This document shows, in pieces, positions 1-21,052 of a stretch of 21,092 nucleotides of DNA (its first letter is position 1; every line of letters begins with the position of its first letter). A program made the position numbers and the translations under genes. Origin of the DNA: a virus; the IMG/VR virus record IMGVR_UViG_3300036828_000816, positions 1 to 21,092 of that record; one strand, written 5' to 3'. Under the pieces are notes generated by a model. That model saw only the letters and a list, made by a program, of their open reading frames with translations. It did no database searches and was not told the DNA's origin.

Positions 1-21
1 ATGACGTCCGAGGCCGAAGGG

Positions 22-53
22 AAAAAGACCGCCCGGGTTGGGGGCTGCCGGTC
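22..53 (-). terminator. Candidate Rho-independent terminator after the HNH gene
   Basis: Read on the minus strand, GACCG (53-49) pairs with CGGTC (31-27) around a GC-rich 17-nt loop and is followed at once by five T (26-22). The upstream arm overlaps the stop codon of the HNH gene. It would end the leftward early operon. The stem is only five perfect pairs, with possible extra GC pairing inside the loop, so strength is uncertain. Confidence 0.5.
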
Positions 54-306
54 ACCAGCGCCGCGACCGCCTCCCCACCCTGCCGGCCCGCCTCTTGGCC
101 TGCGTGATCTGTCCACCACCTCGGCTGTTGCAACTGCGACACAGGCAGCGCAAATTCTCGGGGGCATGCCACCCGCCGTGGGTCAGGGCGACGATGTGAT
201 CGGCGGTGTTGGCCTGCTTGCCGCAGATCGCGCAGCGGTAGCCGGCCGCCTCCAAGGTGGCGAGCCGTGCCGCCTTGTACTGGGCTGACTGGTACGGATC
301 GCCCAT
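52..306 (-). CDS. Small HNH endonuclease
   Basis: An 84-residue HNH-family nuclease that would cut DNA using one metal ion. Visible in order: a zinc-type CxxC pair (C25, C28), the first histidine in ADHI (D36-H37), the central asparagine in PENL (N51), and a second pair C56-x2-C59 followed by N60, giving an H-N-N variant. The C-terminus is short and basic. In many siphophages such HNH genes lie just before the small terminase and take part in packaging; here the small terminase lies at the other window edge, which fits if the genome is circular or if the edges lie near the packaging site. The ATG at 306 follows a 650-bp pentameric repeat and has no clear Shine-Dalgarno. The family is clear; the packaging role is inferred. 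Confidence 0.85.
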   Translation of the reverse strand: MGDPYQSAQYKAARLATLEAAGYRCAICGKQANTADHIVALTHGGWHAPENLRCLCRSCNSRGGGQITQAKRRAGRVGRRSRRW

Positions 307-957
307 GCCCTACCAAGTGTGCCAAGCCGTGCCGAACCTTGCCATACCCGGCGAGACCGAGCCGTACCCAGCCGTGCCTGCCTTGCCATGCCGTGCCGAA
401 CCCCGCCTAGCGACAACCAGCCCAAGACACACCATGCCAAGCCCTGCCACGCCTGCCATGCCGAACCCCGCCTAACCGCGCCAGACCCCGCCGCAACTAA
501 CCAAGCCCAGCCGCGCCAGACCCCGCCGCTACCGTGCCCTGCCGAACCGCGCCTGCCGTGCCATACCAAACCAGACCCGACCGCGCCGTACCGCGCCAGC
601 ACCACGCCGATGCCAAACCGCGCCCTGCCAGACCGCGCCTGCCATGCGACGCCGTACCGAACCGAACCGGGCCCTGCCTATGCCAGCGTCATACCGCGCC
701 AGACCTGACCACGCCGCGCCGAACCCTGCCTGCCACACCGTGCCCTGCCGAACCGCGCCCTGCGCCGATACAGCCGAGCCGCGCCGGACCCTGCGACACC
801 GAACCTTGCCTGCCGTGCCGTGCCGACGCCCGGACTTGCCGAACCGAACCGTGCCCGGACCAGCCGTGCCCTACCGCGCCTGCCGTGCCCAGCCGAGCCC
901 TACCGCGCCAGACCGGACCGCACCTAGCCATAGCGAACCCCGCCGCACCGCGCCGCG
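307..957 (-). repeat. Long degenerate pentanucleotide array, GGYNN on the minus strand
   Basis: The 650 bp between the HNH gene and the gene at 958-1434 are built almost wholly from a 5-bp unit: RCC recurs every five bases on the plus strand (consensus NRCCN), so the leftward transcript reads GGY every five bases. About 130 units fit, with a few one-base phase slips. Longer words such as TGCCGAACCGCGCC recur. The array begins and ends right at the flanking genes. Because CC-rich sequence avoids stop codons, several frames on both strands stay open by chance. I take it as non-coding. GG runs spaced by three bases match the minimal pattern for two-tier G-quadruplexes in DNA or RNA. Confidence 0.85.
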
Positions 958-1434
958 TCACTCCGAAGGCTGTTCACCGGCCACTTCGGCGGCCATTCTG
1001 CGCAGCTCGCGGTAGTAGAAGTCTTGGTGCTTGTACCGCCGTTCGATACCGGCGAGGTCGCGGCGCATCTGGCGTAGGAGCCGTTCTTGGCGTTCGGGGC
1101 TGTCGTTGATGGCGTCTTGGGGCACGTAGGAGCCGTGTCCGACGCCGACGGAGCGGGCTGGTATCCATTCGCGGATTTTGAACTCTTCGGAGTCGCCGTT
1201 GGTGGTGGCGGTGACGAGGATTTGGACGCTGCGGATGAGTTGGCCGGCTTGCCAGACCCGCCAGCGGTGGGCGGCTTCGCTGTCGTCCCATTCGAAGAAG
1301 CCGTGCAACGGGTGTTCGGGTTCGCGGGCGGCGTCGACGACTTCTTCGGGTACGAGCCGTGCGCGTTCTTCCCACATGGACCGCAGCGACGTGGCGACGA
1401 TCTCGACTTTGGTGGTGGGCTGCAGGTCGGTCAC
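958..1434 (-). CDS. Conserved phage early protein of unknown function
   Basis: A 158-residue soluble protein starting at GTG 1434, which overlaps the stop of the upstream gene by 4 bp (GTGA), so translation is probably coupled. The middle segment HGFFEWDDSEAAHRWR followed by GQLIRSV is a pattern I recognise from uncharacterised early proteins of many phages. The C-terminal third (about residues 110-150) is charged and helical, ERQERLLRQMRRDL onward, and may form a coiled coil. No catalytic motif or membrane segment is visible. It lies after the RecT-like gene and the 196-residue gene, which suggests a role in DNA metabolism, but no function is assigned. It ends exactly where the pentameric array begins. 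Confidence 0.8.
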   Translation of the reverse strand: MTDLQPTTKVEIVATSLRSMWEERARLVPEEVVDAAREPEHPLHGFFEWDDSEAAHRWRVWQAGQLIRSVQILVTATTNGDSEEFKIREWIPARSVGVGHGSYVPQDAINDSPERQERLLRQMRRDLAGIERRYKHQDFYYRELRRMAAEVAGEQPSE

Positions 1435-2021
1435 AGTTGGATCTCCTTGGCTTGGACGTTTTCGGCGACTTTGAAGGTGCCGAACTCGGGTCGCCATTCG
1501 CCTACGCCGACGTTGCCGCCCGCGTCGACGAGGGCGATGAGGGAATCGAGGCTGAACTGGTTACGGATGTAGACGATTTGCAGGGTGGCTGTCCACGGCC
1601 AGTACACGGGCCGGTAGCGGAGGTCGGCGACGCCGGTGGCGTTACGGACCGGGTCTTCCCGCATTTTGGGGACGCCATCGATGGCTACGAGCATGTCGGC
1701 GCCTTCGCCTTTCACGAACAACGCCACTTTGAGTCCGGTCATAGTGATTTTGGAGCCGCGGAAGAAGCGGGCACCGCCGACCACAGCCGATTTGAACGCC
1801 ACCGCGGGGTGGCCGTAGCGGTCGCCGGGTAGCCGGTATTGGGCGGCTTCGAACAGGGCGTCGGGGTTTTTCGGTTCGCGTTCGGTGGCGTGCCCTTGCT
1901 GGTGGTCGAGCATCATCTGGCGCGCTTTTTCGGAGAAGCGGTTCTGGATGAGCGGCGCGGTTCCTTCGATCGGGATCTCGGCCATGGATCGGCCGAGTCG
2001 CTTAAGTTGGATTTCTGCCAT
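1431..2021 (-). CDS. Conserved phage early protein of unknown function, glycine-rich C-terminal motif
   Basis: A 196-residue protein of a type I recognise from early regions of phages of several bacterial phyla, without a known function. Family-like landmarks: IEGTAPLIQNRFSEKARQMM near the N-terminus, HPAVAFKSAV at about 71-80, MREDPVRNATGVADLRYRP at about 120-138, and the glycine-rich GGNVGVGEWRPEFGTF at about 168-183. The start is ambiguous because MAEI occurs at residues 1 and 13; I use ATG 2021, preceded by a weak GAAAG. The gene sits downstream of the RecT-like gene, separated by tandem hairpins, and overlaps the next gene by 4 bp. A role in recombination or single-strand binding is possible from context only. 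The glycine-rich loop is loosely reminiscent of RAMP (Cas5/Cas7-type) folds, which is speculative. Confidence 0.8.
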   Translation of the reverse strand: MAEIQLKRLGRSMAEIPIEGTAPLIQNRFSEKARQMMLDHQQGHATEREPKNPDALFEAAQYRLPGDRYGHPAVAFKSAVVGGARFFRGSKITMTGLKVALFVKGEGADMLVAIDGVPKMREDPVRNATGVADLRYRPVYWPWTATLQIVYIRNQFSLDSLIALVDAGGNVGVGEWRPEFGTFKVAENVQAKEIQL

Positions 2022-2032
2022 TGGTCTACTTT

Positions 2033-2086
2033 CTGGTTCTGTCCGCCGGGCGGCGGGACACTGGTTCTGTCCGCCGTTCGGCGGAC
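2033..2086 (-). repeat. Two tandem hairpins with a 16-bp direct repeat upstream of the 196-residue gene
   Basis: CTGGTTCTGTCCGCCG occurs at 2033-2048 and again at 2061-2076, a 28-bp period. Each copy opens a hairpin: GTCCGCCG-TT-CGGCGGAC at 2069-2086 is perfect over 8 bp, and 2041-2059 forms a similar stem with one bulge. They lie in the only sizeable gap of the early operon, 12-65 bases before the ATG at 2021, so they would be in the leader of the 196-residue gene. They lack T-tracts on the minus strand. Attenuator, RNA-processing site or protein-binding site are all possible. Confidence 0.7.
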
Positions 2087-2156
2087 CTGATGTAATGATG
2101 GTTATCGGCGGTCATACGATCCGCTCCAGCGCTAGGAGCTCGTCGAGGCGCGCGAT

Positions 2157-2969
2157 CTATGCGGCGTCGAATGGCCGTCCGGGGTCGGCGTCGTCCCATC
2201 CGTTGACGGCGGGGTCGTCGTCGTGGACGTCGGGCGGTGTGGGTTCGTCGGTGGCGGTTTCGTCGGGGCCGGGGACGTCGAGGGCGGCGAGGATGAGCCA
2301 GGCGAGCCGGTCGCGGTGTAGGTGGGTGAGTCGGGGTCCGTCGATGTTGGGGATCCCGTCGCCCCGGGCGTCGGCGGCAAGCTGGGCGCGGGTGTTGGGG
2401 TGGAGCTCGTCGAGAGCGCGGCGCAGCAGGGCCCGGTCCTCGGGTGATGGCCGGTTTGCGGGTTGGGTGGGGACGTCGAGCTCGACGCCGGCGGTTTCCA
2501 TGCCGCGAAGAACTTCGGGGGCGTAAAGCGACACAGCCAGGGTGGTAGCCCTAGCAGTCAGCATCCGCTCGGGCATTTTGGTGTACATGGCACTGGAGGT
2601 CCACCCGGCCTTTTCGGCTTGGGCCATGGTCACGGTCACGAGGTGGACCTGGCCGCCTTCGCGGCCGATGCCGACGGTGGCTGACTCGGCGGTGGCCTCG
2701 ACGAGCTTGAACCCGTAGCCGGCCCGGGCGAGCAGGGTGCGTTGCAGTTCGGCCATGAGCCCGACGTTGCCGTGGATGACGTAGACGTCGGAGAGGTTGA
2801 GGACGGGGTCGAGGTCTAAGGCGTCGAGGGTGGTGGCGGCGATGATGACGTCGGCGACCTTGACCACGCCGTCTTTTTTGAAGTGGTCGGGGAGGAGTGA
2901 CGATGCCGCCCAGCGGCGTACGGCGACGTCGACGCGGTCGATGCCGGTGGGGACGATCTCGGTACTCAT
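2157..2969 (-). CDS. recT: RecT-family single-strand DNA annealing protein
   Basis: A 270-residue protein that matches the layout of phage RecT-type annealases, which bind single-stranded DNA and anneal complementary strands during phage recombination. Visible family pattern: NLSDVYVIHGNVGLMAELQRTLLARAGYGF (about 58-87), a glycine-rich beta stretch with GREGGQVHLVTVTMAQAEKAGW (about 103-124), and MYTKMPERMLTARATTLAVSLYAPEVLRGM (about 128-157), which is the MxxxRA helix typical of RecT. The last 50 residues are acidic and proline-rich, as in many annealases and SSB-like proteins, and may recruit partners. ATG 2969 overlaps the upstream stop by 4 bp (ATGA). No partner exonuclease of the RecE or lambda-Exo type is seen. 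The call rests on motif recognition, not on a search. Confidence 0.72.
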   Translation of the reverse strand: MSTEIVPTGIDRVDVAVRRWAASSLLPDHFKKDGVVKVADVIIAATTLDALDLDPVLNLSDVYVIHGNVGLMAELQRTLLARAGYGFKLVEATAESATVGIGREGGQVHLVTVTMAQAEKAGWTSSAMYTKMPERMLTARATTLAVSLYAPEVLRGMETAGVELDVPTQPANRPSPEDRALLRRALDELHPNTRAQLAADARGDGIPNIDGPRLTHLHRDRLAWLILAALDVPGPDETATDEPTPPDVHDDDPAVNGWDDADPGRPFDAA

Positions 2970-3136
2970 TCGGTGGCCTTCCGGTTGGTTGGTGTCGCGG
3001 TGTCGCTGTCGCTGTCGCTATCGAACAGGGGGATGGGGCCGTCGAGCTCGGGTATGTCGGCGGGGATTCCGAGCGCCCGGCGGCCGAGGGCGATGTGGAG
3101 GGCGGCGAGGTCGCGTTTGGCTACCGGGTCGCTCAT
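2966..3136 (-). CDS. Small early protein with an SD-repeat tail
   Basis: A 56-residue protein, ATG at 3136 overlapping the upstream stop by 4 bp and itself overlapped by the RecT-like start. The N-terminal half (SDPVAKRDLAALHIALGRRALG) looks helical; the C-terminal half is acidic and contains four SD dipeptides in a row, encoded by a short hexanucleotide repeat (GTCGCT, about 2996-3021 on the plus strand). A longer form from ATG 3166 is possible but would overlap the initiator gene more. No family is recognised. Tight coupling between the replication initiator and RecT genes suggests an accessory role in phage replication or recombination. Confidence 0.65.
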   Translation of the reverse strand: MSDPVAKRDLAALHIALGRRALGIPADIPELDGPIPLFDSDSDSDTATPTNRKATE

Positions 3137-3630
3137 CGGCCGCCCCGTTCCCGGTACTCGCCCCACGTCTCGCCCGGAGCCGGTCCCTTGTGGATAACCA
3201 CCCCGGTGTCGGTGCCGTTGCCGTGCCCAGCGCCGGCCGTCCGCATGGCGGACGAGACGGTCGGCGCGTGTTCTTGATCTGTTCCTTTACCGTTCCGGGT
3301 GCACGTGGTGCCGGGGTGCGCGGCATCTGGTGCCGGGGTCGCGGCACGTGGTGCCGGGGTTACCCCGGCATCTGGTGCCGGGGTGAGCAGGTAGGTGGAC
3401 GATGCCCCGCCCTTGGGGATAACTCTGAGATGGTCGGCGTCGGCGAGCCGGCCGAGGGCGTAGCGGATCGCCCGATCGCTGAGGCCGGTATCGGCGCGGA
3501 TACAGGCGATCGAAGGCCACGCCCGGAAGTCGACGCCGGCCCGGTAGGCGAGGGCGACGGCCACGAACCGGGCCGTCGGGTCGACCTCGGGAGGCAGGTT
3601 GAACGCGGCCCGCACCGCCTGCCAGCTCAT
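3133..3630 (-). CDS. Winged-helix phage replication initiator candidate
   Basis: A 165-residue protein with an N-terminal winged helix of the HTH_36/replication-protein type: MSWQAVRAAFNLPPEVDPTARFVAVALAYRA (about 1-31), then WPSIACIRADTGLSDRAIRYALGRL (about 39-62) as the DNA-reading helices and a wing ending STYLL (about 78-82). From about residue 83 it is low-complexity, with TPAPDA-type repeats, then a short polar tail ending GETWGEYRERGGR. The repeats come from four iteron-like DNA copies (3301-3384), so the gene probably contains the origin the protein binds, as lambda O does. It is short for an initiator and has no ATPase domain. ATG 3630 overlaps the upstream gene by 4 bp. An alternative is a transcription factor. 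Confidence 0.65.
   Translation of the reverse strand: MSWQAVRAAFNLPPEVDPTARFVAVALAYRAGVDFRAWPSIACIRADTGLSDRAIRYALGRLADADHLRVIPKGGASSTYLLTPAPDAGVTPAPRAATPAPDAAHPGTTCTRNGKGTDQEHAPTVSSAMRTAGAGHGNGTDTGVVIHKGPAPGETWGEYRERGGR
3301..3384. repeat. Four 17-bp iteron-like direct repeats, candidate replication origin
   Basis: GCACGTGGTGCCGGGGT at 3301-3317 and 3344-3360, and GCATCTGGTGCCGGGGT at 3323-3339 and 3368-3384, all on the plus strand, with start-to-start spacing of 22, 21 and 24 bp (about two helical turns). The first copy is out of coding frame with the others, so selection on the DNA rather than on the peptide is likely. A 9-bp perfect inverted repeat with a one-base centre (3352-3370) joins copies three and four. 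A less GC-rich stretch at about 3271-3296 lies next to the array and could be the unwinding element. Confidence 0.65.
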
Positions 3631-3812
3631 CGCAGCCAGGTCATTCGTAGGCGGTACAGCACGGCGGTGCGTAGCCGGTCCAGGGCCTGGTGTTCGTGGA
3701 TCTCCAGCCGGCGGCCGTGCCCGCTGCCACGGCCGTTGTAGCGCTCGTCGATCATCTCGACGAGGATCTGGACGTCCTCGACGTCGACTCTGATTTTCCG
3801 CCGTTCGGGCAC
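3627..3812 (-). CDS. Small early protein, unknown function
   Basis: A 61-residue protein starting at GTG 3812, directly after the stop of the upstream gene, and overlapping the initiator start by 4 bp. The sequence is charged and mostly helical: RVDVEDVQILVEMIDERYN in the N-terminal half, and HQALDRLRTAVLYRLRMTWLR at the end, separated by a flexible GRGSGHGRR segment. No family, signal peptide or membrane segment is visible. Position in the early operon just before the initiator suggests a role in replication control, without direct evidence. Confidence 0.6.
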   Translation of the reverse strand: MPERRKIRVDVEDVQILVEMIDERYNGRGSGHGRRLEIHEHQALDRLRTAVLYRLRMTWLR

Positions 3813-3992
3813 TCATGGTCTCCCGGTCCGGTTCGATGGATGGGACCACGCCCCCTCAAGCTGGCGGCGGGCGGCGTGTACCAGCGACGCCAGGGCTTGG
3901 TGTCTGGGGTCGCCGGTCAGGTCGTAGAGATAGGCGTGATAGGCCTCGCGTTGGCGGTACCACGCCACCCGTAGCCGCCGCCCCCAGTTCAT
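3813..3992 (-). CDS. Small basic early protein, unknown function
   Basis: A 59-residue protein, ATG 3992 overlapping the upstream stop by 4 bp (ATGA). It is rich in arginine, tyrosine and histidine: WGRRLRVAWYRQREAYHAYL near the start, then HQALASLVHAARRQLEG. It is probably a small all-helical protein. The HQAL plus arginine-rich helix pattern is shared with the C-terminal half of the next gene (HQALDRLRT), which may hint at a related helix in both or be chance. No function is assigned. Confidence 0.6.
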   Translation of the reverse strand: MNWGRRLRVAWYRQREAYHAYLYDLTGDPRHQALASLVHAARRQLEGAWSHPSNRTGRP

Positions 3993-4393
3993 GACGAGCA
4001 GGCCATCTGGAGGGCGATGGCGTCGCGCAGGGCGGTGAGCTCGTGGGTGTCCATCGGCCCGGGGGCGCGAGTGCCGATGGCTTTGGAGATCCGCCGGGCG
4101 AGCAGGTTGCAGCGCCGCCGGTTGACCGGTTCGATCCCGTCGGGCACGTTGATGTCGTCGCCGTCGATGAGGCGCCATTTGAGGGCGGCTCCGGGGTTCC
4201 CGAAGGGGGTACGGACCCGGTAGACGGTGCGGTCGGTGATCTCGCCGTCGTCGTCGACGGCGATCATCCGTTCGTAGCCGCACACCACCCCGCCGACCGG
4301 TTCGCCGTTGGCGTCGACGACGCTGCGGGACCATATCGACCAGCCCACCCCGATCAGGGAGGCGTCGGCGATGAGGGCGTCGGAGTCCGTCAC
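3989..4393 (-). CDS. Early protein of unknown function
   Basis: A 134-residue protein starting at GTG 4393, overlapping the stop of the Cro-like gene by 4 bp (GTGA). The N-terminal 75 residues look like beta-rich sequence (GVGWSIWSRSVV, GGVVCGYERMIAVDDDGEI, VYRVRTPFGN), and the C-terminal part is helical, with RRRCNLLARRISKAIG and HELTALRDAIALQMACS. There is no recognisable family or catalytic motif. As the second gene of the leftward early operon it would be made immediately on induction. Confidence 0.65.
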   Translation of the reverse strand: MTDSDALIADASLIGVGWSIWSRSVVDANGEPVGGVVCGYERMIAVDDDGEITDRTVYRVRTPFGNPGAALKWRLIDGDDINVPDGIEPVNRRRCNLLARRISKAIGTRAPGPMDTHELTALRDAIALQMACSS

Positions 4394-4602
4394 GCCACCA
4401 CGCCCTCGCCGTTGACCAGGTCACCGAGGGAGACGTCGAGGGCTGCCGCGACGCGTATCAGGGTGTCGAGGCTGGGCACGTTCCGCCCGGTCTCGAGTCG
4501 TTGGATGGTGGAGGTTGAGACGTCGGCGGCGCGGGCGACGTACTCCTGGGAGTAGCCGTTGCGTTCTCGTATCGTTCGGGTTCGATCGCCGATTTGGGAC
4601 AT
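4390..4602 (-). CDS. Xre/Cro-type helix-turn-helix regulator, first gene of the early operon
   Basis: A 70-residue single-domain HTH_3 protein. Helices: RTRTIRERNGYSQEYVARAA, then VSTSTIQRLETGRNVPSLDT with the recognition helix around STSTIQRLE, then a closing LIRVAAALDVSLGDLV. There is no dimerisation or cleavage domain, so it is the size of a Cro rather than a LexA-like repressor. I choose ATG 4602 over ATG 4618-4620 because a good promoter (-35 TTGACG, -10 TAGGTA) lies such that transcription would begin at or within 2-3 bases of 4602, giving a leaderless mRNA; the upstream ATG lies inside the promoter. It heads the leftward early genes and faces the repressor candidate. It could alternatively be the lysogenic repressor. 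Confidence 0.82.
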   Translation of the reverse strand: MSQIGDRTRTIRERNGYSQEYVARAADVSTSTIQRLETGRNVPSLDTLIRVAAALDVSLGDLVNGEGVVA

Positions 4603-4610
4603 GGTCCAAA

Positions 4611-4639
4611 TACCTACCATGGCACCGATGCCCCGTCAA
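4611..4639 (-). promoter_or_regulatory. Leftward early promoter, probably leaderless
   Basis: On the minus strand TTGACG (4639-4634) and TAGGTA (4616-4611) are separated by 17 bp. The -10 ends eight bases before the ATG at 4602, so the predicted start of transcription is at or next to the start codon. An imperfect palindrome (4621-4632) sits in the spacer, where a bound protein would block RNA polymerase. Confidence 0.65.
4621..4632. promoter_or_regulatory. Candidate operator, left copy
   Basis: GGCACCGATGCC, an inverted repeat with 4-bp arms around CCGA. With the flanking CAT it matches the second site (4670-4684, read on the other strand) at 12 of 15 positions: CAT-R-GCAC-S-GATGC-Y. It lies inside the spacer of the leftward promoter. 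Confidence 0.55.
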
Positions 4640-4645
4640 GAGTGC

Positions 4646-4674
4646 TTGCTATCCGCGGAACCGCTCGCTAGCAT
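4646..4674 (+). promoter_or_regulatory. Rightward repressor-integrase promoter, probably leaderless
   Basis: TTGCTA (4646-4651) and TAGCAT (4669-4674) are separated by 17 bp. The -10 ends seven bases before the ATG at 4682, so the transcript should start at or one base before the start codon. The second candidate operator covers the end of the -10 and the start site. Confidence 0.65.
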
Positions 4675-4681
4675 CCGTGCT
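4670..4681. promoter_or_regulatory. Candidate operator, right copy
   Basis: AGCATCCGTGCT, an inverted repeat with 4-bp arms around TCCG, overlapping the -10 box and the predicted start of the rightward transcript. It is the mate of the site at 4621-4632, in opposite orientation, with centres 49 bp apart (close to five helical turns). Confidence 0.55.
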
Positions 4682-5023
4682 ATGGCACACGTGCAGTTGC
4701 GGAGGTTGGGGCCGGAATCGTGGGGGAACCGGCTGCGCCGGGCGCGCCAGGCGGTCGGACTGGAATTCCGTCAGGTCGAGGAAATCCTGTTCCCCCATGT
4801 GAGCAAGTCGGCCGTGGTCCGACTCGAGAAACGCCAGGAGCCGCCGACCTACCGCAAGGATCGGGGCCGGGCCGCGCTCATCGTTCTGCTCTACGGATTC
4901 GAGCTCGACGACTTCGACCTGAGCGACGCCGACATCCCGCCGGCCATCGACATCGAGGTCCTTCAGTCTCTTCGGAGGCGCGTCCCGTCTACCAAATGGT
5001 ATTCGCCGTCGGCGGCAGCATGA
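4682..5023 (+). CDS. HTH immunity repressor candidate with an alanine C-terminal end
   Basis: A 113-residue DNA-binding protein. Residues about 13-75 form an Xre-like domain (WGNRLRRARQAVGLEFRQVE, then HVSKSAVVRLEKRQEPP as turn and recognition helix, then RAALIVLLYGFELDDFDL). The C-terminal 40 residues are an extension ending SPSAAA, which resembles an ssrA-like tag seen by ClpXP. ATG 4682 is chosen because the -10 box lies seven bases upstream and no Shine-Dalgarno is present. Its stop overlaps the next start (ATGA). It shares a promoter with integrase and faces a Cro-like gene, as repressor genes of integration-dependent immunity phages do. Whether this or the minus-strand HTH is the true repressor is inference. 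Confidence 0.75.
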   Translation: MAHVQLRRLGPESWGNRLRRARQAVGLEFRQVEEILFPHVSKSAVVRLEKRQEPPTYRKDRGRAALIVLLYGFELDDFDLSDADIPPAIDIEVLQSLRRRVPSTKWYSPSAAA

Positions 5024-5223
5024 ACGGGTACCCGCTGCGCCTGGCCGAGGAGCGGTTGCGCCGGGTGGAGCAGACGCTCATCAACCTGATCGCCGAGACC
5101 GGCGACCTGGACGGGCCAGCCGAGCCGATCTGGGCCCGCAACCAGCTCCTGGGCGCGCTGGGACTGGTGCAGGACGTGCAGGGCATGCTTGCGGAGGACG
5201 GGGACCTCACAAAGGGGTTGTAA
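5020..5223 (+). CDS. Small helical protein between repressor and integrase
   Basis: A 67-residue protein, ATG 5020 overlapping the repressor stop by 4 bp, with its own TAA overlapping the integrase ATG by one base (TAATG). It is predicted helical: YPLRLAEERLRRVEQTLINL, a short linker, then PIWARNQLLGALGLVQDVQG. There is no HTH or MerR-like motif, so it does not look like a usual excisionase, although a recombination directionality or accessory role would fit the position. No family is recognised. Translational coupling on both sides means it is produced together with repressor and integrase. Confidence 0.7.
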   Translation: MNGYPLRLAEERLRRVEQTLINLIAETGDLDGPAEPIWARNQLLGALGLVQDVQGMLAEDGDLTKGL

Positions 5224-6047
5224 TGCTGCTGTCCGACGCCGTCGCCGTCTACATCGCCGACCGTCACACCCGGGGCGAGGTGACCGCCCTCACCGCCCGC
5301 CATCTCCGCTCCCGCCTCGGGATGCTCGTCGCCGCCTGCCCGGCCGGCGTTGAGCTCGCTCAGCTCGACCGCGACCTGGTTCGGGCCTGGCAGGGCAGCG
5401 TCGGCGGGCTGCGCCCCGCCAGCCGGCGCTCCTATCTGTCCACTGTGCGCACGTTCTGCACGTGGTGCGCCGAGTCCGGGCTGATGACCGCCGACCCGAC
5501 CGTCGGCCTGGGCCGGGTCCGCGAGCCCCGCCACATGCCCCGGGCGTTGTCGGCCGGTCAGATGGCCCGGGTCCGTCTGGTGCTGCCCGACACCCGGGCC
5601 GAGCTCGTCGTCGGACTGATGGCCGGCTGCGGGCTGCGCTGCTGCGAGGTGGCCCGCCTCCAGACCGCCGACTACGACGCCGGGGCCCGCACCGTCTTTG
5701 TGGTCGGCAAACGGGGCGACGAGCGGGTCCTGCCCGTACCCGGGTCGGTGGCCGATCTGGTCGACCGGTGGGCGGCGTCCCGAGAAGCGGGGCGTCTCGT
5801 CGGGCTGTCCGCCTCGAGCCTGTCGAGGATGGTGACGGGGTGGATGGACGAGGCCGGGATCAAGACCGGGCCCCGGGATGGGATCTCCGCCCACGCCCTG
5901 CGGCACACCTTCGCGTCGGACATGTTGGACCGTTGCGGCAACGTCCGCGTCGTTCAGGAAGCACTCGGGCACGTGTCGTTGGCAACCACGCAGCGCTATC
6001 TGCGCCGGGCGTCGCTCGAGCAGATCCGGGCGGCCATGGGCGCATGA
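5223..6047 (+). CDS. int: Tyrosine site-specific integrase
   Basis: A 274-residue tyrosine recombinase that would join phage attP to a host attB site. The N-terminal SAM-like core-binding domain covers about 1-100 (ARHLRSRLGML, RRSYLSTVRTFCTWC). The catalytic domain shows all the expected residues: R139 (GCGLRCCEV), K163 (VGKRGDERVLP), H224 and R227 (HALRHTFASDM), H250 (LGHVSLATTQ) and nucleophile Y259 (QRYL). It is short, with no arm-type DNA-binding domain, as in simple XerC/D-like phage integrases. The start ATG 5223 has a good AAAGGGG Shine-Dalgarno and overlaps the upstream stop. It is the last gene of the rightward operon and converges with the lysis genes. No tRNA-like attP core was found nearby. 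Confidence 0.95.
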   Translation: MLLSDAVAVYIADRHTRGEVTALTARHLRSRLGMLVAACPAGVELAQLDRDLVRAWQGSVGGLRPASRRSYLSTVRTFCTWCAESGLMTADPTVGLGRVREPRHMPRALSAGQMARVRLVLPDTRAELVVGLMAGCGLRCCEVARLQTADYDAGARTVFVVGKRGDERVLPVPGSVADLVDRWAASREAGRLVGLSASSLSRMVTGWMDEAGIKTGPRDGISAHALRHTFASDMLDRCGNVRVVQEALGHVSLATTQRYLRRASLEQIRAAMGA

Positions 6048-6055
6048 TGCTGGCA

Positions 6056-6104
6056 TGTCTGCCCCGGGGCGCCCGGGGCGTGGGTGCGCTCGCCAGGGCA
6101 GACA
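6056..6104. terminator. Hairpin between convergent integrase and lysis operons
   Basis: TGTCTGCCC (6056-6064) and GGGCAGACA (6096-6104) form a perfect 9-bp stem enclosing a very GC-rich 31-base loop that can fold further (CCCCGGGG, GGGGCGCCC). It begins nine bases after the integrase stop and lies 26 bases beyond the end of the last minus-strand lysis gene. It would serve both convergent operons as a bidirectional terminator. No T-tract is present, as is common in high-GC bacteria. The inverted repeat could instead be part of attP. Confidence 0.6.
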
Positions 6105-6130
6105 CCGCCATGGTCACATAGCGGGCCGGT

Positions 6131-6238
6131 TTAGCTGAGTCGCAGGAAGAACAGCACGATGATCCCGGCGACGACGGCGCCGAGGGCGACCAGGCCGACC
6201 AGGGTCAGCCAGAACAGACATCCATCCCAGTAGTCCAA
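6131..6238 (-). CDS. 35-residue single-pass membrane protein of the lysis cassette
   Basis: A tiny open frame from TTG 6238 to TAA, five bases after the stop of the 63-residue gene. It encodes DYWDGCLFWL followed by one long hydrophobic helix (about residues 8-31) and ends RLS. The acidic N-terminus and basic end suggest N-out topology. It is the last gene of the late operon. A holin, antiholin or pinholin-like role is possible from position and structure. The start codon is uncertain, with no clear Shine-Dalgarno, so coupled translation would be needed. Confidence 0.5.
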   Translation of the reverse strand: MDYWDGCLFWLTLVGLVALGAVVAGIIVLFFLRLS

Positions 6239-6243
6239 ATGGG

Positions 6244-6435
6244 TCAGTCGTCGTGGTGGTTCTTACCGTTGACCGGCAGGTTGGTGAGGATGATGGCGAT
6301 CCCGCCCAGGATGCCGATGACGGCCAGGGCGTCGCTGTCGGTGCTGTCGTGGCGGACCAGCACGAAGATGGACAGGGCCAGGACCCCGAAGCCGAGGGCC
6401 ATGAGGTACAGCAGGCGTTTGACCCGCCACGGCAT
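6244..6435 (-). CDS. Holin candidate, two membrane segments
   Basis: A 63-residue protein from ATG 6435, directly after the stop of the 29-residue gene. It has a basic start (MPWRVKRLLY), a first membrane helix (about 9-27, LMALGFGVLALSIFVLV), a charged turn RHDSTDSD, a second helix (about 36-53, LAVIGILGGIAIILTNL) and a polar tail rich in histidine and aspartate. Size, two helices and place just after the endolysin fit a class II holin, which opens the membrane to release the lysin. No sequence family is recognised with certainty. Confidence 0.75.
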   Translation of the reverse strand: MPWRVKRLLYLMALGFGVLALSIFVLVRHDSTDSDALAVIGILGGIAIILTNLPVNGKNHHDD

Positions 6436-19449: not shown

Positions 19450-19637
19450 CAGCCCTGCCCGATTTCGGCGACGGTCCCGGCGACCACCAGGCCGAGCCCG
19501 CCGACGACCAGACCGGCCCACACGGCCAGCATCCCGAACCCGACCGCCATCGCCAGGACACCGAGTAGTTGCGCGAGCACCGATGCATATCGTCGCACGT
19601 CGTGCGCCCCGACGCTAGGACGGTCGGGGTCGGTCAC
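19449..19637 (-). CDS. Small two-helix membrane protein between terminase and portal
   Basis: A 62-residue protein from GTG 19637, which overlaps the terminase stop by 4 bp (GTGA) and whose stop overlaps the portal ATG by one base. After a polar start (TDPDRPSVGAHDVRRYAS) it has two adjoining hydrophobic segments (about 19-38, VLAQLLGVLAMAVGFGMLAV; about 40-55, AGLVVGGLGLVVAGT) and a short acidic end. It cannot be a structural head protein of known type. Small membrane proteins in this place occur in other actinophages, with unknown role. Roles in superinfection exclusion or lysis timing are possible. Confidence 0.75.
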   Translation of the reverse strand: MTDPDRPSVGAHDVRRYASVLAQLLGVLAMAVGFGMLAVWAGLVVGGLGLVVAGTVAEIGQG

Positions 19638-21052
19638 AGGATCTGGTACCCGCCGTCGCCGGCCTTGACCAGACCATACCGGGCCAGTGTGACCGCCACC
19701 AACGGGCTGACGTCGCCCCCGGAGCGGCGAGCCCACGCCCACGCGTCCCCCAACACCCGCTTGCGGGCCGCCCGCACCGCCGCGTTGAGCACCGGCTGAT
19801 CGAGGTGGCGGACCTCGCCGCCCACCACCGCGTCGTAGAACTGGCCGCACGCCGCCGCGTACTCCCTCGCCCCCGTCGTCTCCGCTTTCACGGAGAGGCC
19901 CCTCAGGTCGATCAGGAGGCTGTAAGCGGGGCTACCGGCGTCGAGGACAACCGGCCACGGGTTCCAGCGCTCGTAGAGCTCCCGGAGCCGCCCCGGCACC
20001 CAGTCGACCCCGGGGCGGTGCTCGACCACCTCGACGTGAATCTTGCGGTCCTCCCGGCGGCCGGCCACCCCAATGCTCGCGAACGCCCGGTCCGGGGTCA
20101 CGTCGATGGCGAAGCACGGGGTATCGGCGAAGCGCGAGCTCGGCGAACAGGCGTCGGCCCAGGTGCCGGCGTCGAACACCGGGCGACCGCCGCCGGTGCG
20201 CCGGTTCAGGTAGGCCCGGGCGAACTCGCCGGCGTCCATCGAGTCGTGATCGGTGCGGATCACCTCCTCGGTCACGGTGTGCCCCAACGCCGGCATGCAG
20301 CGCCACCAGGTGGCCGGGTCGTCGGGGTCGTCGTCATCGCCGGCCGACCACTCGAAGTACGCCACCCCGTGCCGGTCGTCGGCCTCCACCCGAGCCCGGC
20401 CGTCGTCCACCCGGTCGTGCAGAAACGTCGACTCCTCGGTCCCCATCGTCGACACCACCCACAGCTGGGCTGACGGGCGGGTCAGCATGGCCGGGCGGAA
20501 CGCCTGCACCAGGCGCTCGTCGCGCTGGGCGAACGCCTCGTCGATCATCCCCAGGTCCAGGGTCTGGCCGTGCCCCGAGGTTCCCTCCGACGCCGTGATC
20601 CCGATCGTCGAACCCGTCGCCTTCCACACCATGCGTTCCAAGCCGGTCTGGCGGCGCACCATGTACGCCTTGCGTAGCGTCGTGGCCGCCAGCAGGTCGC
20701 ACTGCTCCTCCCACTTCGACCGGGAGTTGTTGCGGTCCTGGGCCGCGTACAAGGTGCGCTGCCTGGGCCCCCAGGACAACGACCGGTCGACCTCGACGAC
20801 CAAGATCAGCGTCGTCTTGCCCGACTGGCGGGGCACGGTGACCCGAACCTCCCGGTAGGCCGGCAGCCCGGTGTCGGGCATCACCTCGCCGGCCACGTTG
20901 GCGACCTGGGCCTGCCACGGCATGAGCGGCTGGCCGATGATCTTGGCCAGGCGCCCGAGCCGGCCGCCGTTGGTCGGCCGCTCAGGACTCCTGGGCGTCG
21001 CCCATCGGGCCCGACAGAGCTGCGACGAGGTCAGCGAGCCCGTCGTCGTCAT
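19634..21052 (-). CDS. terL: Terminase large subunit
   Basis: A 472-residue packaging motor with ATPase and nuclease. The adenine-motif region is QPLMPWQAQVANVAGEV (about 41-57); Walker A is PRQSGKTT (about 74-81); Walker B plus catalytic acid is LGMIDEAF (about 167-174); the coupling motif is VVSTMGTEES. The nuclease half has AIDVTPDRAFASIGVAG and VVLDAGSPA with acidic metal ligands. It would translocate and cut DNA at the portal. ATG 21052 has an AGAGGA site about 10 bases upstream and overlaps the small subunit gene by 71 bp, longer than other overlaps here, but no other start codon lies before the conserved N-terminal region. Confidence 0.95.
   Translation of the reverse strand: MTTTGSLTSSQLCRARWATPRSPERPTNGGRLGRLAKIIGQPLMPWQAQVANVAGEVMPDTGLPAYREVRVTVPRQSGKTTLILVVEVDRSLSWGPRQRTLYAAQDRNNSRSKWEEQCDLLAATTLRKAYMVRRQTGLERMVWKATGSTIGITASEGTSGHGQTLDLGMIDEAFAQRDERLVQAFRPAMLTRPSAQLWVVSTMGTEESTFLHDRVDDGRARVEADDRHGVAYFEWSAGDDDDPDDPATWWRCMPALGHTVTEEVIRTDHDSMDAGEFARAYLNRRTGGGRPVFDAGTWADACSPSSRFADTPCFAIDVTPDRAFASIGVAGRREDRKIHVEVVEHRPGVDWVPGRLRELYERWNPWPVVLDAGSPAYSLLIDLRGLSVKAETTGAREYAAACGQFYDAVVGGEVRHLDQPVLNAAVRAARKRVLGDAWAWARRSGGDVSPLVAVTLARYGLVKAGDGGYQIL

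What the first reader, a model, noticed from the sequence alone, without database searches (positions are those of the whole stretch)
307..957. 650-bp pentameric GGYNN array between two early genes: a potential string of two-tier G-quadruplexes
Seen: RCC recurs every 5 bp on the plus strand with few phase slips, giving about 130 GGYNN units on the strand that is transcribed from the early promoter; edges coincide with the flanking genes. Known: G2N3 tracts are the minimal two-tetrad quadruplex pattern. Inferred: the array could form quadruplex RNA or R-loops, act in replication or packaging, or be a long untranslated leader for the HNH gene. It is not a tandem satellite of one word but a periodic composition kept over 650 bp, which suggests selection for period and GG spacing rather than for sequence. 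I know of no described function.
Basis: partly seen in the sequence, partly recalled or inferred. Interest (0 to 1): 0.78.

Follow-up and report, generated by a model that had tools for sequence, protein, structure and literature searches.

The report
Phage-encoded VIPR guide-RNA array
The odd 650-base stretch of five-base repeats is very probably the guide-RNA array of a VIPR system, a CRISPR-like RNA-guided weapon described only in 2026 that phages carry and appear to use against rival phages.

Summary
The lag-5 signal at 307-957 is far above shuffled sequence. The array is not a string of quadruplexes or a leader. It is the guide-RNA (vrRNA) array of a VIPR system, as described in a 2026 preprint (PMC13142463): GGY/NN repeats read by a small RAMP protein, Vipr. 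The gene at 1431-2021(-) is Vipr. A profile of its family finds the solved SUSP1 Vipr structure at E=1e-12, and its predicted fold is a CRISPR Cas7/Csm3 RAMP (Z 11.5). Of 93 loci found by Vipr homology, 73 carry a same-strand GGYNN array within 2 kb; 0 carry one on the opposite strand and 3 have one further away. A conserved accessory-type gene (958-1497(-)) sits beside Vipr in 84 of 93. New detail: these continuous arrays are cut into guides of about 8-14 units by a recurring 4-base unit, GGCA|GGY (545 of 667 such slips). Near-identical mycobacteriophages differ by 59 or 113 bp, the length of one or two such modules. The window holds about eight guides. Their natural targets were not established. 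New member of a very recently described kind.

The parts
303..964 (-). vrRNA array: about 130 GGYNN units forming about eight guide modules
   Evidence: Lag-5 test, unit chain, Y at third position 92/93, same-strand arrays in 73/93 Vipr loci
881..956 (-). guide module 1 (NN: GC GC GG TC AT TA GC CC CT GC AG TC TG AC, then GGCA)
   Evidence: parse; junction at 880
811..880 (-). guide module 2 (70 nt, one 6-nt unit)
   Evidence: junctions 880 and 810
731..810 (-). guide module 3 (80 nt, irregular units inside)
   Evidence: junctions 810 and 730
640..730 (-). guide module 4 (91 nt)
   Evidence: junctions 730 and 639
554..639 (-). guide module 5 (86 nt)
   Evidence: junctions 639 and 553
454..553 (-). 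guide module 6 (100 nt)
   Evidence: junctions 553 and 453
379..453 (-). guide module 7 (75 nt)
   Evidence: junctions 453 and 378
307..378 (-). guide module 8 and end of the array, running up to the HNH start codon
   Evidence: junction 378; parse of 319-378
1431..2021 (-). vipr gene, 196 aa RAMP protein (phrog_4652) with glycine loop GVGEWRPEFG
   Evidence: SUSP1 Vipr structure 36pp by profile E=1e-12; same PHROG as SUSP1 agp039; AF2 pLDDT 90.5; Cas7/Csm3 folds Z 11.5
958..1497 (-). vap-like accessory gene (phrog_15946); function unknown, weak winged-helix resemblance
   Evidence: beside Vipr in 84/93 loci; model pLDDT 87.9, best Z 6.3 only

Best explanation
The region is the vrRNA array of a VIPR system carried by a small temperate actinophage-like virus. 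The early operon on the minus strand would make one RNA containing vipr, the accessory gene and about eight GGY/NN guides joined head to tail at GGCA|GGY junctions. Vipr, a Cas7-like RAMP protein, would coat each guide, holding the GGY triplets out of pairing and presenting the NN pairs. The complex would then bind DNA of a competing phage or prophage that matches the NN pairs with one skipped base between them, and block its transcription. Shown here: array, Vipr family membership and fold, conserved linkage, guide-sized modules gained or lost in relatives. Inferred from PMC13142463: RNA production, binding, the one-base skip, and repression of rivals. Not known: what the window's own guides target.
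For: Repeat grammar as published (9-16 YNNGG repeats, conserved GGY, free NN). The protein matches the SUSP1 Vipr chain 36pp at E=1e-12 and shares a PHROG with SUSP1 agp039, which in the SUSP1 record is flanked by GGTNN stretches. Cas7/Csm3 RAMP fold. Same-strand arrays at 73/93 Vipr loci, 0/93 antisense, 3/93 elsewhere. Accessory gene in 84/93. Junctions spaced mostly 39-69 nt, i.e. 8-14 units. Module-length indels of 59 and 113 bp between phages otherwise 100% and 99.7% identical over the compared stretch; neither is a multiple of 3. One-base-skip matches of 19/20 or better: 2 real guides against 0.18 expected from 76 shuffles, and none for skips 0, 2, 3. Both lie with the skipped base at the codon wobble position, one of them in another phage's vipr gene.
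Against: No natural target was established for the window's guides. One 25/28 match of guide 1 in a primase-like gene (L110) lies in DNA of 57% GC and cannot be told from chance. Scans with other guides gave no hit or low-GC hits that look like chance. The skip signal across relatives is modest. The window array has more 6-nt and mutated units than L016, so part of it may be decaying. No conserved 3' tail like SUSP1's was found. The accessory gene is a different family from SUSP1's neighbour (phrog_15946 vs phrog_5926).
Confidence: 0.93

Rival explanations
1. A degenerate or partly inactive VIPR array: the same origin, but most of the window's guides no longer work.
For: Several units have a mutated GG or 6-7 nt spacing, and modules 3 and 4 are irregular; L016 is far cleaner.
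Against: The vipr and accessory ORFs are intact and conserved. Seven regular junctions remain. L014, L015 and L044, relatives with long arrays, show similar irregular units.
Confidence: 0.15
2. A string of two-tier G-quadruplexes or an R-loop element acting in transcription, replication or packaging.
For: G2N3 spacing fits the minimal quadruplex pattern; GG lies on the operon strand.
Against: A pyrimidine is fixed at the third position 92/93. The arrays follow the Vipr family and have guide-sized modules with a fixed junction word.
Confidence: 0.02
3. A repeat-rich protein-coding gene; several phage records annotate short 'hypothetical proteins' here (UmaThurman gp40, Pipp gp43, BobaPhett gp51, Pippy gp47).
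For: Short ORFs exist in and beside the array, and depositors called genes in homologous arrays.
Against: All six frames have stops in the window and in the 3.9-kb L044 array. Natural indels are 59 and 113 bp, not multiples of 3. Periodicity is 5, not 3.
Confidence: 0.01
4. An untranslated leader or origin-like iteron region for the HNH gene or for replication.
For: It lies between two early genes and next to a RecT/replication operon.
Against: Position relative to neighbours varies: after the accessory gene, between it and vipr, or before vipr, while linkage to vipr is constant.
Confidence: 0.03

Closest known systems
VIPR system of Escherichia phage SUSP1 (type II in PMC13142463; Vipr structure 36pp)
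   Same: Homologous RAMP protein (same phrog_4652), GGY/NN repeats flanking the operon on the same strand, small accessory gene beside vipr.
   Different: SUSP1 has separate guides of about 100 nt, each with a structured 3' tail; the window has a continuous array joined by GGCA|GGY with no tail found between modules. The accessory gene belongs to another family (phrog_15946 instead of phrog_5926).
Staggered or overlapping VIPR arrays mentioned in PMC13142463 (fig. S18)
   Same: Long uninterrupted runs of GGY/NN with several guides.
   Different: The supplement was not readable here, so whether the GGCA junction arrays are that type cannot be said.
CRISPR class 1 RAMP effectors (Cas7, Csm3)
   Same: Fold of the protein (Z 11.5 over 160 residues) and an RNA-guided logic.
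   Different: About 12% sequence identity; no CRISPR repeats and no cas genes named in the family scans made; guides carry noncontiguous NN pairs.
Arrays in Mycobacterium phages of genus Cheoctovirus and in Gordonia phages UmaThurman, Pipp, ODay, Ecliptus
   Same: Same Vipr family (44-54% identity), same accessory family, same GGCA|GGY grammar.
   Different: Array position relative to vipr, and guide content.

Membership tests
VIPR | Vipr protein homologous to known Vipr | tested here: met
   hmmsearch of family profile hits PDB 36pp 'SUSP1 Vipr protein' at E=1e-12; phrog_4652 shared with SUSP1 agp039
VIPR | RAMP fold (RRM core, glycine-rich loop, thumb) | tested here: met
   AF2 pLDDT 90.5; top folds all Cas7/Csm3-type; GxGEWRPxFG loop conserved. 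The thumb was not examined separately
VIPR | vrRNA with conserved GGY alternating with variable NN, 9-16 units per guide | tested here: met
   Y at third position 92/93; modules of about 8-17 units
VIPR | Array in or next to the vipr operon, same strand | tested here: met
   in the window; 73/93 homologous loci, 0/93 antisense
VIPR | Accessory vap gene | tested here: inconclusive
   A conserved neighbour gene (84/93), but not SUSP1's neighbour family, and its fold match is weak
VIPR | Structured 3' tail on the guide | tested here: inconclusive
   Hairpins follow some arrays (e.g. L026, L061) but not the window's, nor most
VIPR | DNA targets follow the one-base-skip rule | tested here: inconclusive
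   Modest enrichment among relatives with wobble phase; no sure target for the window's guides
VIPR | Guide RNA expressed and bound by Vipr | not testable with these tools
   needs small-RNA sequencing and pull-down
CRISPR-Cas | CRISPR repeats and cas genes | tested here: not met
   No CRISPR-like direct repeats reported by the tandem-repeat scan; no cas family among the window proteins scanned

The most novel reading that the evidence does not exclude
These tail-less, continuous arrays are a distinct VIPR architecture in which the 4-nt unit GGCA|GGY is itself the guide boundary that Vipr or a host nuclease reads. Whole guides are gained and lost as units, so arrays can grow to some 4 kb and dozens of guides (L044), a simple form of updatable memory without Cas1.
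Probability: 0.3. Interest if true: 0.8.

Novelty: new member of a known kind. Interest (0 to 1): 0.55.

Why it matters
VIPR was described in one 2026 preprint, in which the systems tested in most depth were from an E. coli phage and a Pseudomonas prophage. The same system here occurs in a small actinophage-like virus and in cultured phages of Mycobacterium smegmatis and Gordonia terrae, where it could be tested at once. The junction grammar says how to read long continuous arrays guide by guide, and the module-length differences between sister phages suggest that arrays change one or a few guides at a time. Several annotated 'hypothetical proteins' in these phages are probably guide arrays.

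Tried and rejected
Rfam had no match in 1-6300. PADLOC 2023 knows neither protein. BLAST hits in plasmids included a perfect GCCGT microsatellite in a Cellulosimicrobium plasmid (L010), rejected as unrelated: one word repeated, no Vipr homologue in the part compared. The Rhodoplanes plasmid array (L011) was real, with Vipr at 37% identity. Target scans: window guide 1 gave one hit in IMG/VR (L110), 25 of 28 guide bases with wobble phase, but at 57% GC and not distinguishable from chance given the size of the collection; a second window guide gave none; a conserved Cheoctovirus guide gave seven hits, all in 37-49% GC DNA, taken as chance; the L053 guide gave none at full length; Faecalibacterium guides gave nothing better than chance. 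Two searches failed because 'of' needs a genome handle; one alignment failed on a stop codon in L044. Foldseek and VIA-align gave only weak winged-helix matches for the accessory protein. Folding array ends did not reveal a shared tail. SUSP1 Vipr was not among the fold-search rows listed, whose library ends in April 2026; it was found by sequence.

Full report
What is there. The window (a 21,092-bp virus record) encodes a small temperate siphovirus-like genome: HNH nuclease, RecT, replication protein, repressor, integrase, tape measure, capsid and large terminase. Between the gene at 958-1497(-) and the HNH gene at 52-306(-) lies a stretch with CC every five bases on the plus strand. The lag-5 count is 93 against 33.3 +/- 4.7 in 1000 dinucleotide shuffles, with a maximum of 51. 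The chain of units spans 303-964. Read on the operon strand, the unit is GGYNN. The third base is C or T in 92 of 93 units that are followed by another GG five bases on, and the last two bases are free.

Relatives. BLAST showed similar stretches in Cheoctovirus mycobacteriophages, in Gordonia phages UmaThurman, Pipp and Ecliptus, and in a Rhodoplanes plasmid, usually next to a homologue of the window's gene at 1431-2021(-). A literature search then found PMC13142463 (read). It describes VIPR: a RAMP protein of about 20 kDa (Vipr), an accessory gene (vap), and guide RNAs of 9-16 YNNGG repeats with fixed GGY and variable NN. The NN pairs match DNA with one base skipped between them. Vipr with such a guide represses transcription, and most predicted natural targets are competing phages, satellites and prophages.

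Is the neighbour a Vipr? A profile of 80 family members led by the window protein hits one solved protein with significance, 36pp 'SUSP1 Vipr protein', E=1e-12. The window protein and SUSP1 agp039 fall in the same PHROG, and agp039 lies between GGTNN stretches in the SUSP1 record. The AlphaFold2 model (pLDDT 90.5) matches CRISPR Cas7/Csm3 RAMPs: Foldseek E 1.5e-6, best Z 11.5 over 160 residues. The C-terminal glycine loop G-GVGEWRPxFG is conserved down to SUSP1.

Is the linkage general? From 12 seed proteins, 308 relatives were found in IMG/VR (the best 80 kept) and 13 in reference genomes. Of 93 loci, 73 have a same-strand GGYNN array within 2 kb of vipr, none has one on the opposite strand, and 3 have one on either strand further away. 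One array (L044) is 3,954 bp with 673 chained units. An accessory-type gene of the window's kind (phrog_15946) lies within 4 kb in 84 of 93. Its model (pLDDT 87.9) resembles winged-helix proteins only weakly (best Z 6.3), and it is not the family of SUSP1's neighbour gene (phrog_5926). I therefore call it vap-like.

Anatomy of the array. In the first parse, segments ended again and again in a 4-base unit. Over 111 arrays there are 667 4-nt slips, of which 545 are GGCA|GGY. Intervals between them have a median of 54 nt with most at 39-69 nt, and 346 of 470 are 4 modulo 5, that is, whole units plus one short one. The window has seven such junctions and so about eight modules of 70-100 nt. Sister phages show what the modules are. 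Donkeykong and Brocalys (L003, L012) are 99.7% identical over 340 aligned bases except for one 113-bp gap, and BobaPhett and ByChance (L006, L008) are identical over 297 except for one 59-bp gap. The parsed modules in these arrays are 59 and 54 nt long, so the gaps equal two modules and one module. Neither gap is a multiple of three, which also speaks against a protein. Whether the preprint's supplement already describes this junction could not be checked.

Targets. 282 guides of ten or more units from all loci were compared with the fetched DNA (arrays masked) under skips of 0-3. Skip 1 gave two guides at 19/20 or better, against 0.18 expected from 76 order-shuffled sets; 10 against 5.5 at 18 or better; 77 against 62.3 at 17 or better. 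Skips 0, 2 and 3 gave none at 19. This is suggestive, not strong. Both 19/20 sites put the skipped base at the codon wobble position, as the preprint reports. One lies in the vipr gene of another phage (L053 guide, L044 gene, peptide EKKGDMGTFM), the other in a portal gene (L096 guide, L045). For the window's own guides no target is established: the best candidate, in L110, is compatible with chance.

How it most likely works. Shown: array, Vipr, conserved linkage, modular grammar. Inferred from the preprint: transcription with the early operon, guide production at the junctions, Vipr binding, DNA recognition with one skipped base, and repression of rival phages. Marked as unknown: whether junctions are cleavage sites, what the accessory protein does, and which phages are targeted.

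Verdict. The quadruplex reading is not supported. It is a new member of a very recently described kind, with a junction grammar that may or may not already be in that work's supplement.

Noticed in passing
window 1-306 and 19634-21052: The 21-kb record begins with an HNH gene and ends with the large terminase gene, both on the minus strand; in relative L014 an HNH-like gene is followed by terminase-like sequence. The record may be a nearly complete, unusually small siphovirus genome cut near its ends.
   Followed up: no
L044:10700-14640: Longest array found: about 3.95 kb and 673 chained GGY units, on the order of fifty guides.
   Followed up: partly
L045:6192-8825 (-): The portal gene matched by an L096 guide appears to carry an in-frame intein-like insertion.
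   Followed up: no
L071-L074, downstream of vipr: Several arrays in this group end in a shared sequence GGAACCTGGG.ACGTTCG.AAACTGCCCAC that could form a hairpin and may be a guide tail.
   Followed up: no
L010:3008-3194: Cellulosimicrobium plasmid pCPRO01 has a perfect run of 37 GCCGT units upstream of a parA-like gene; unrelated to VIPR.
   Followed up: partly
L002:2986-3309, L004:2915-3184, L006:2988-3152, L007:2993-3181, L008:2998-3156: Annotated 'hypothetical proteins' in these phage records lie inside guide arrays and are probably not genes.
   Followed up: partly
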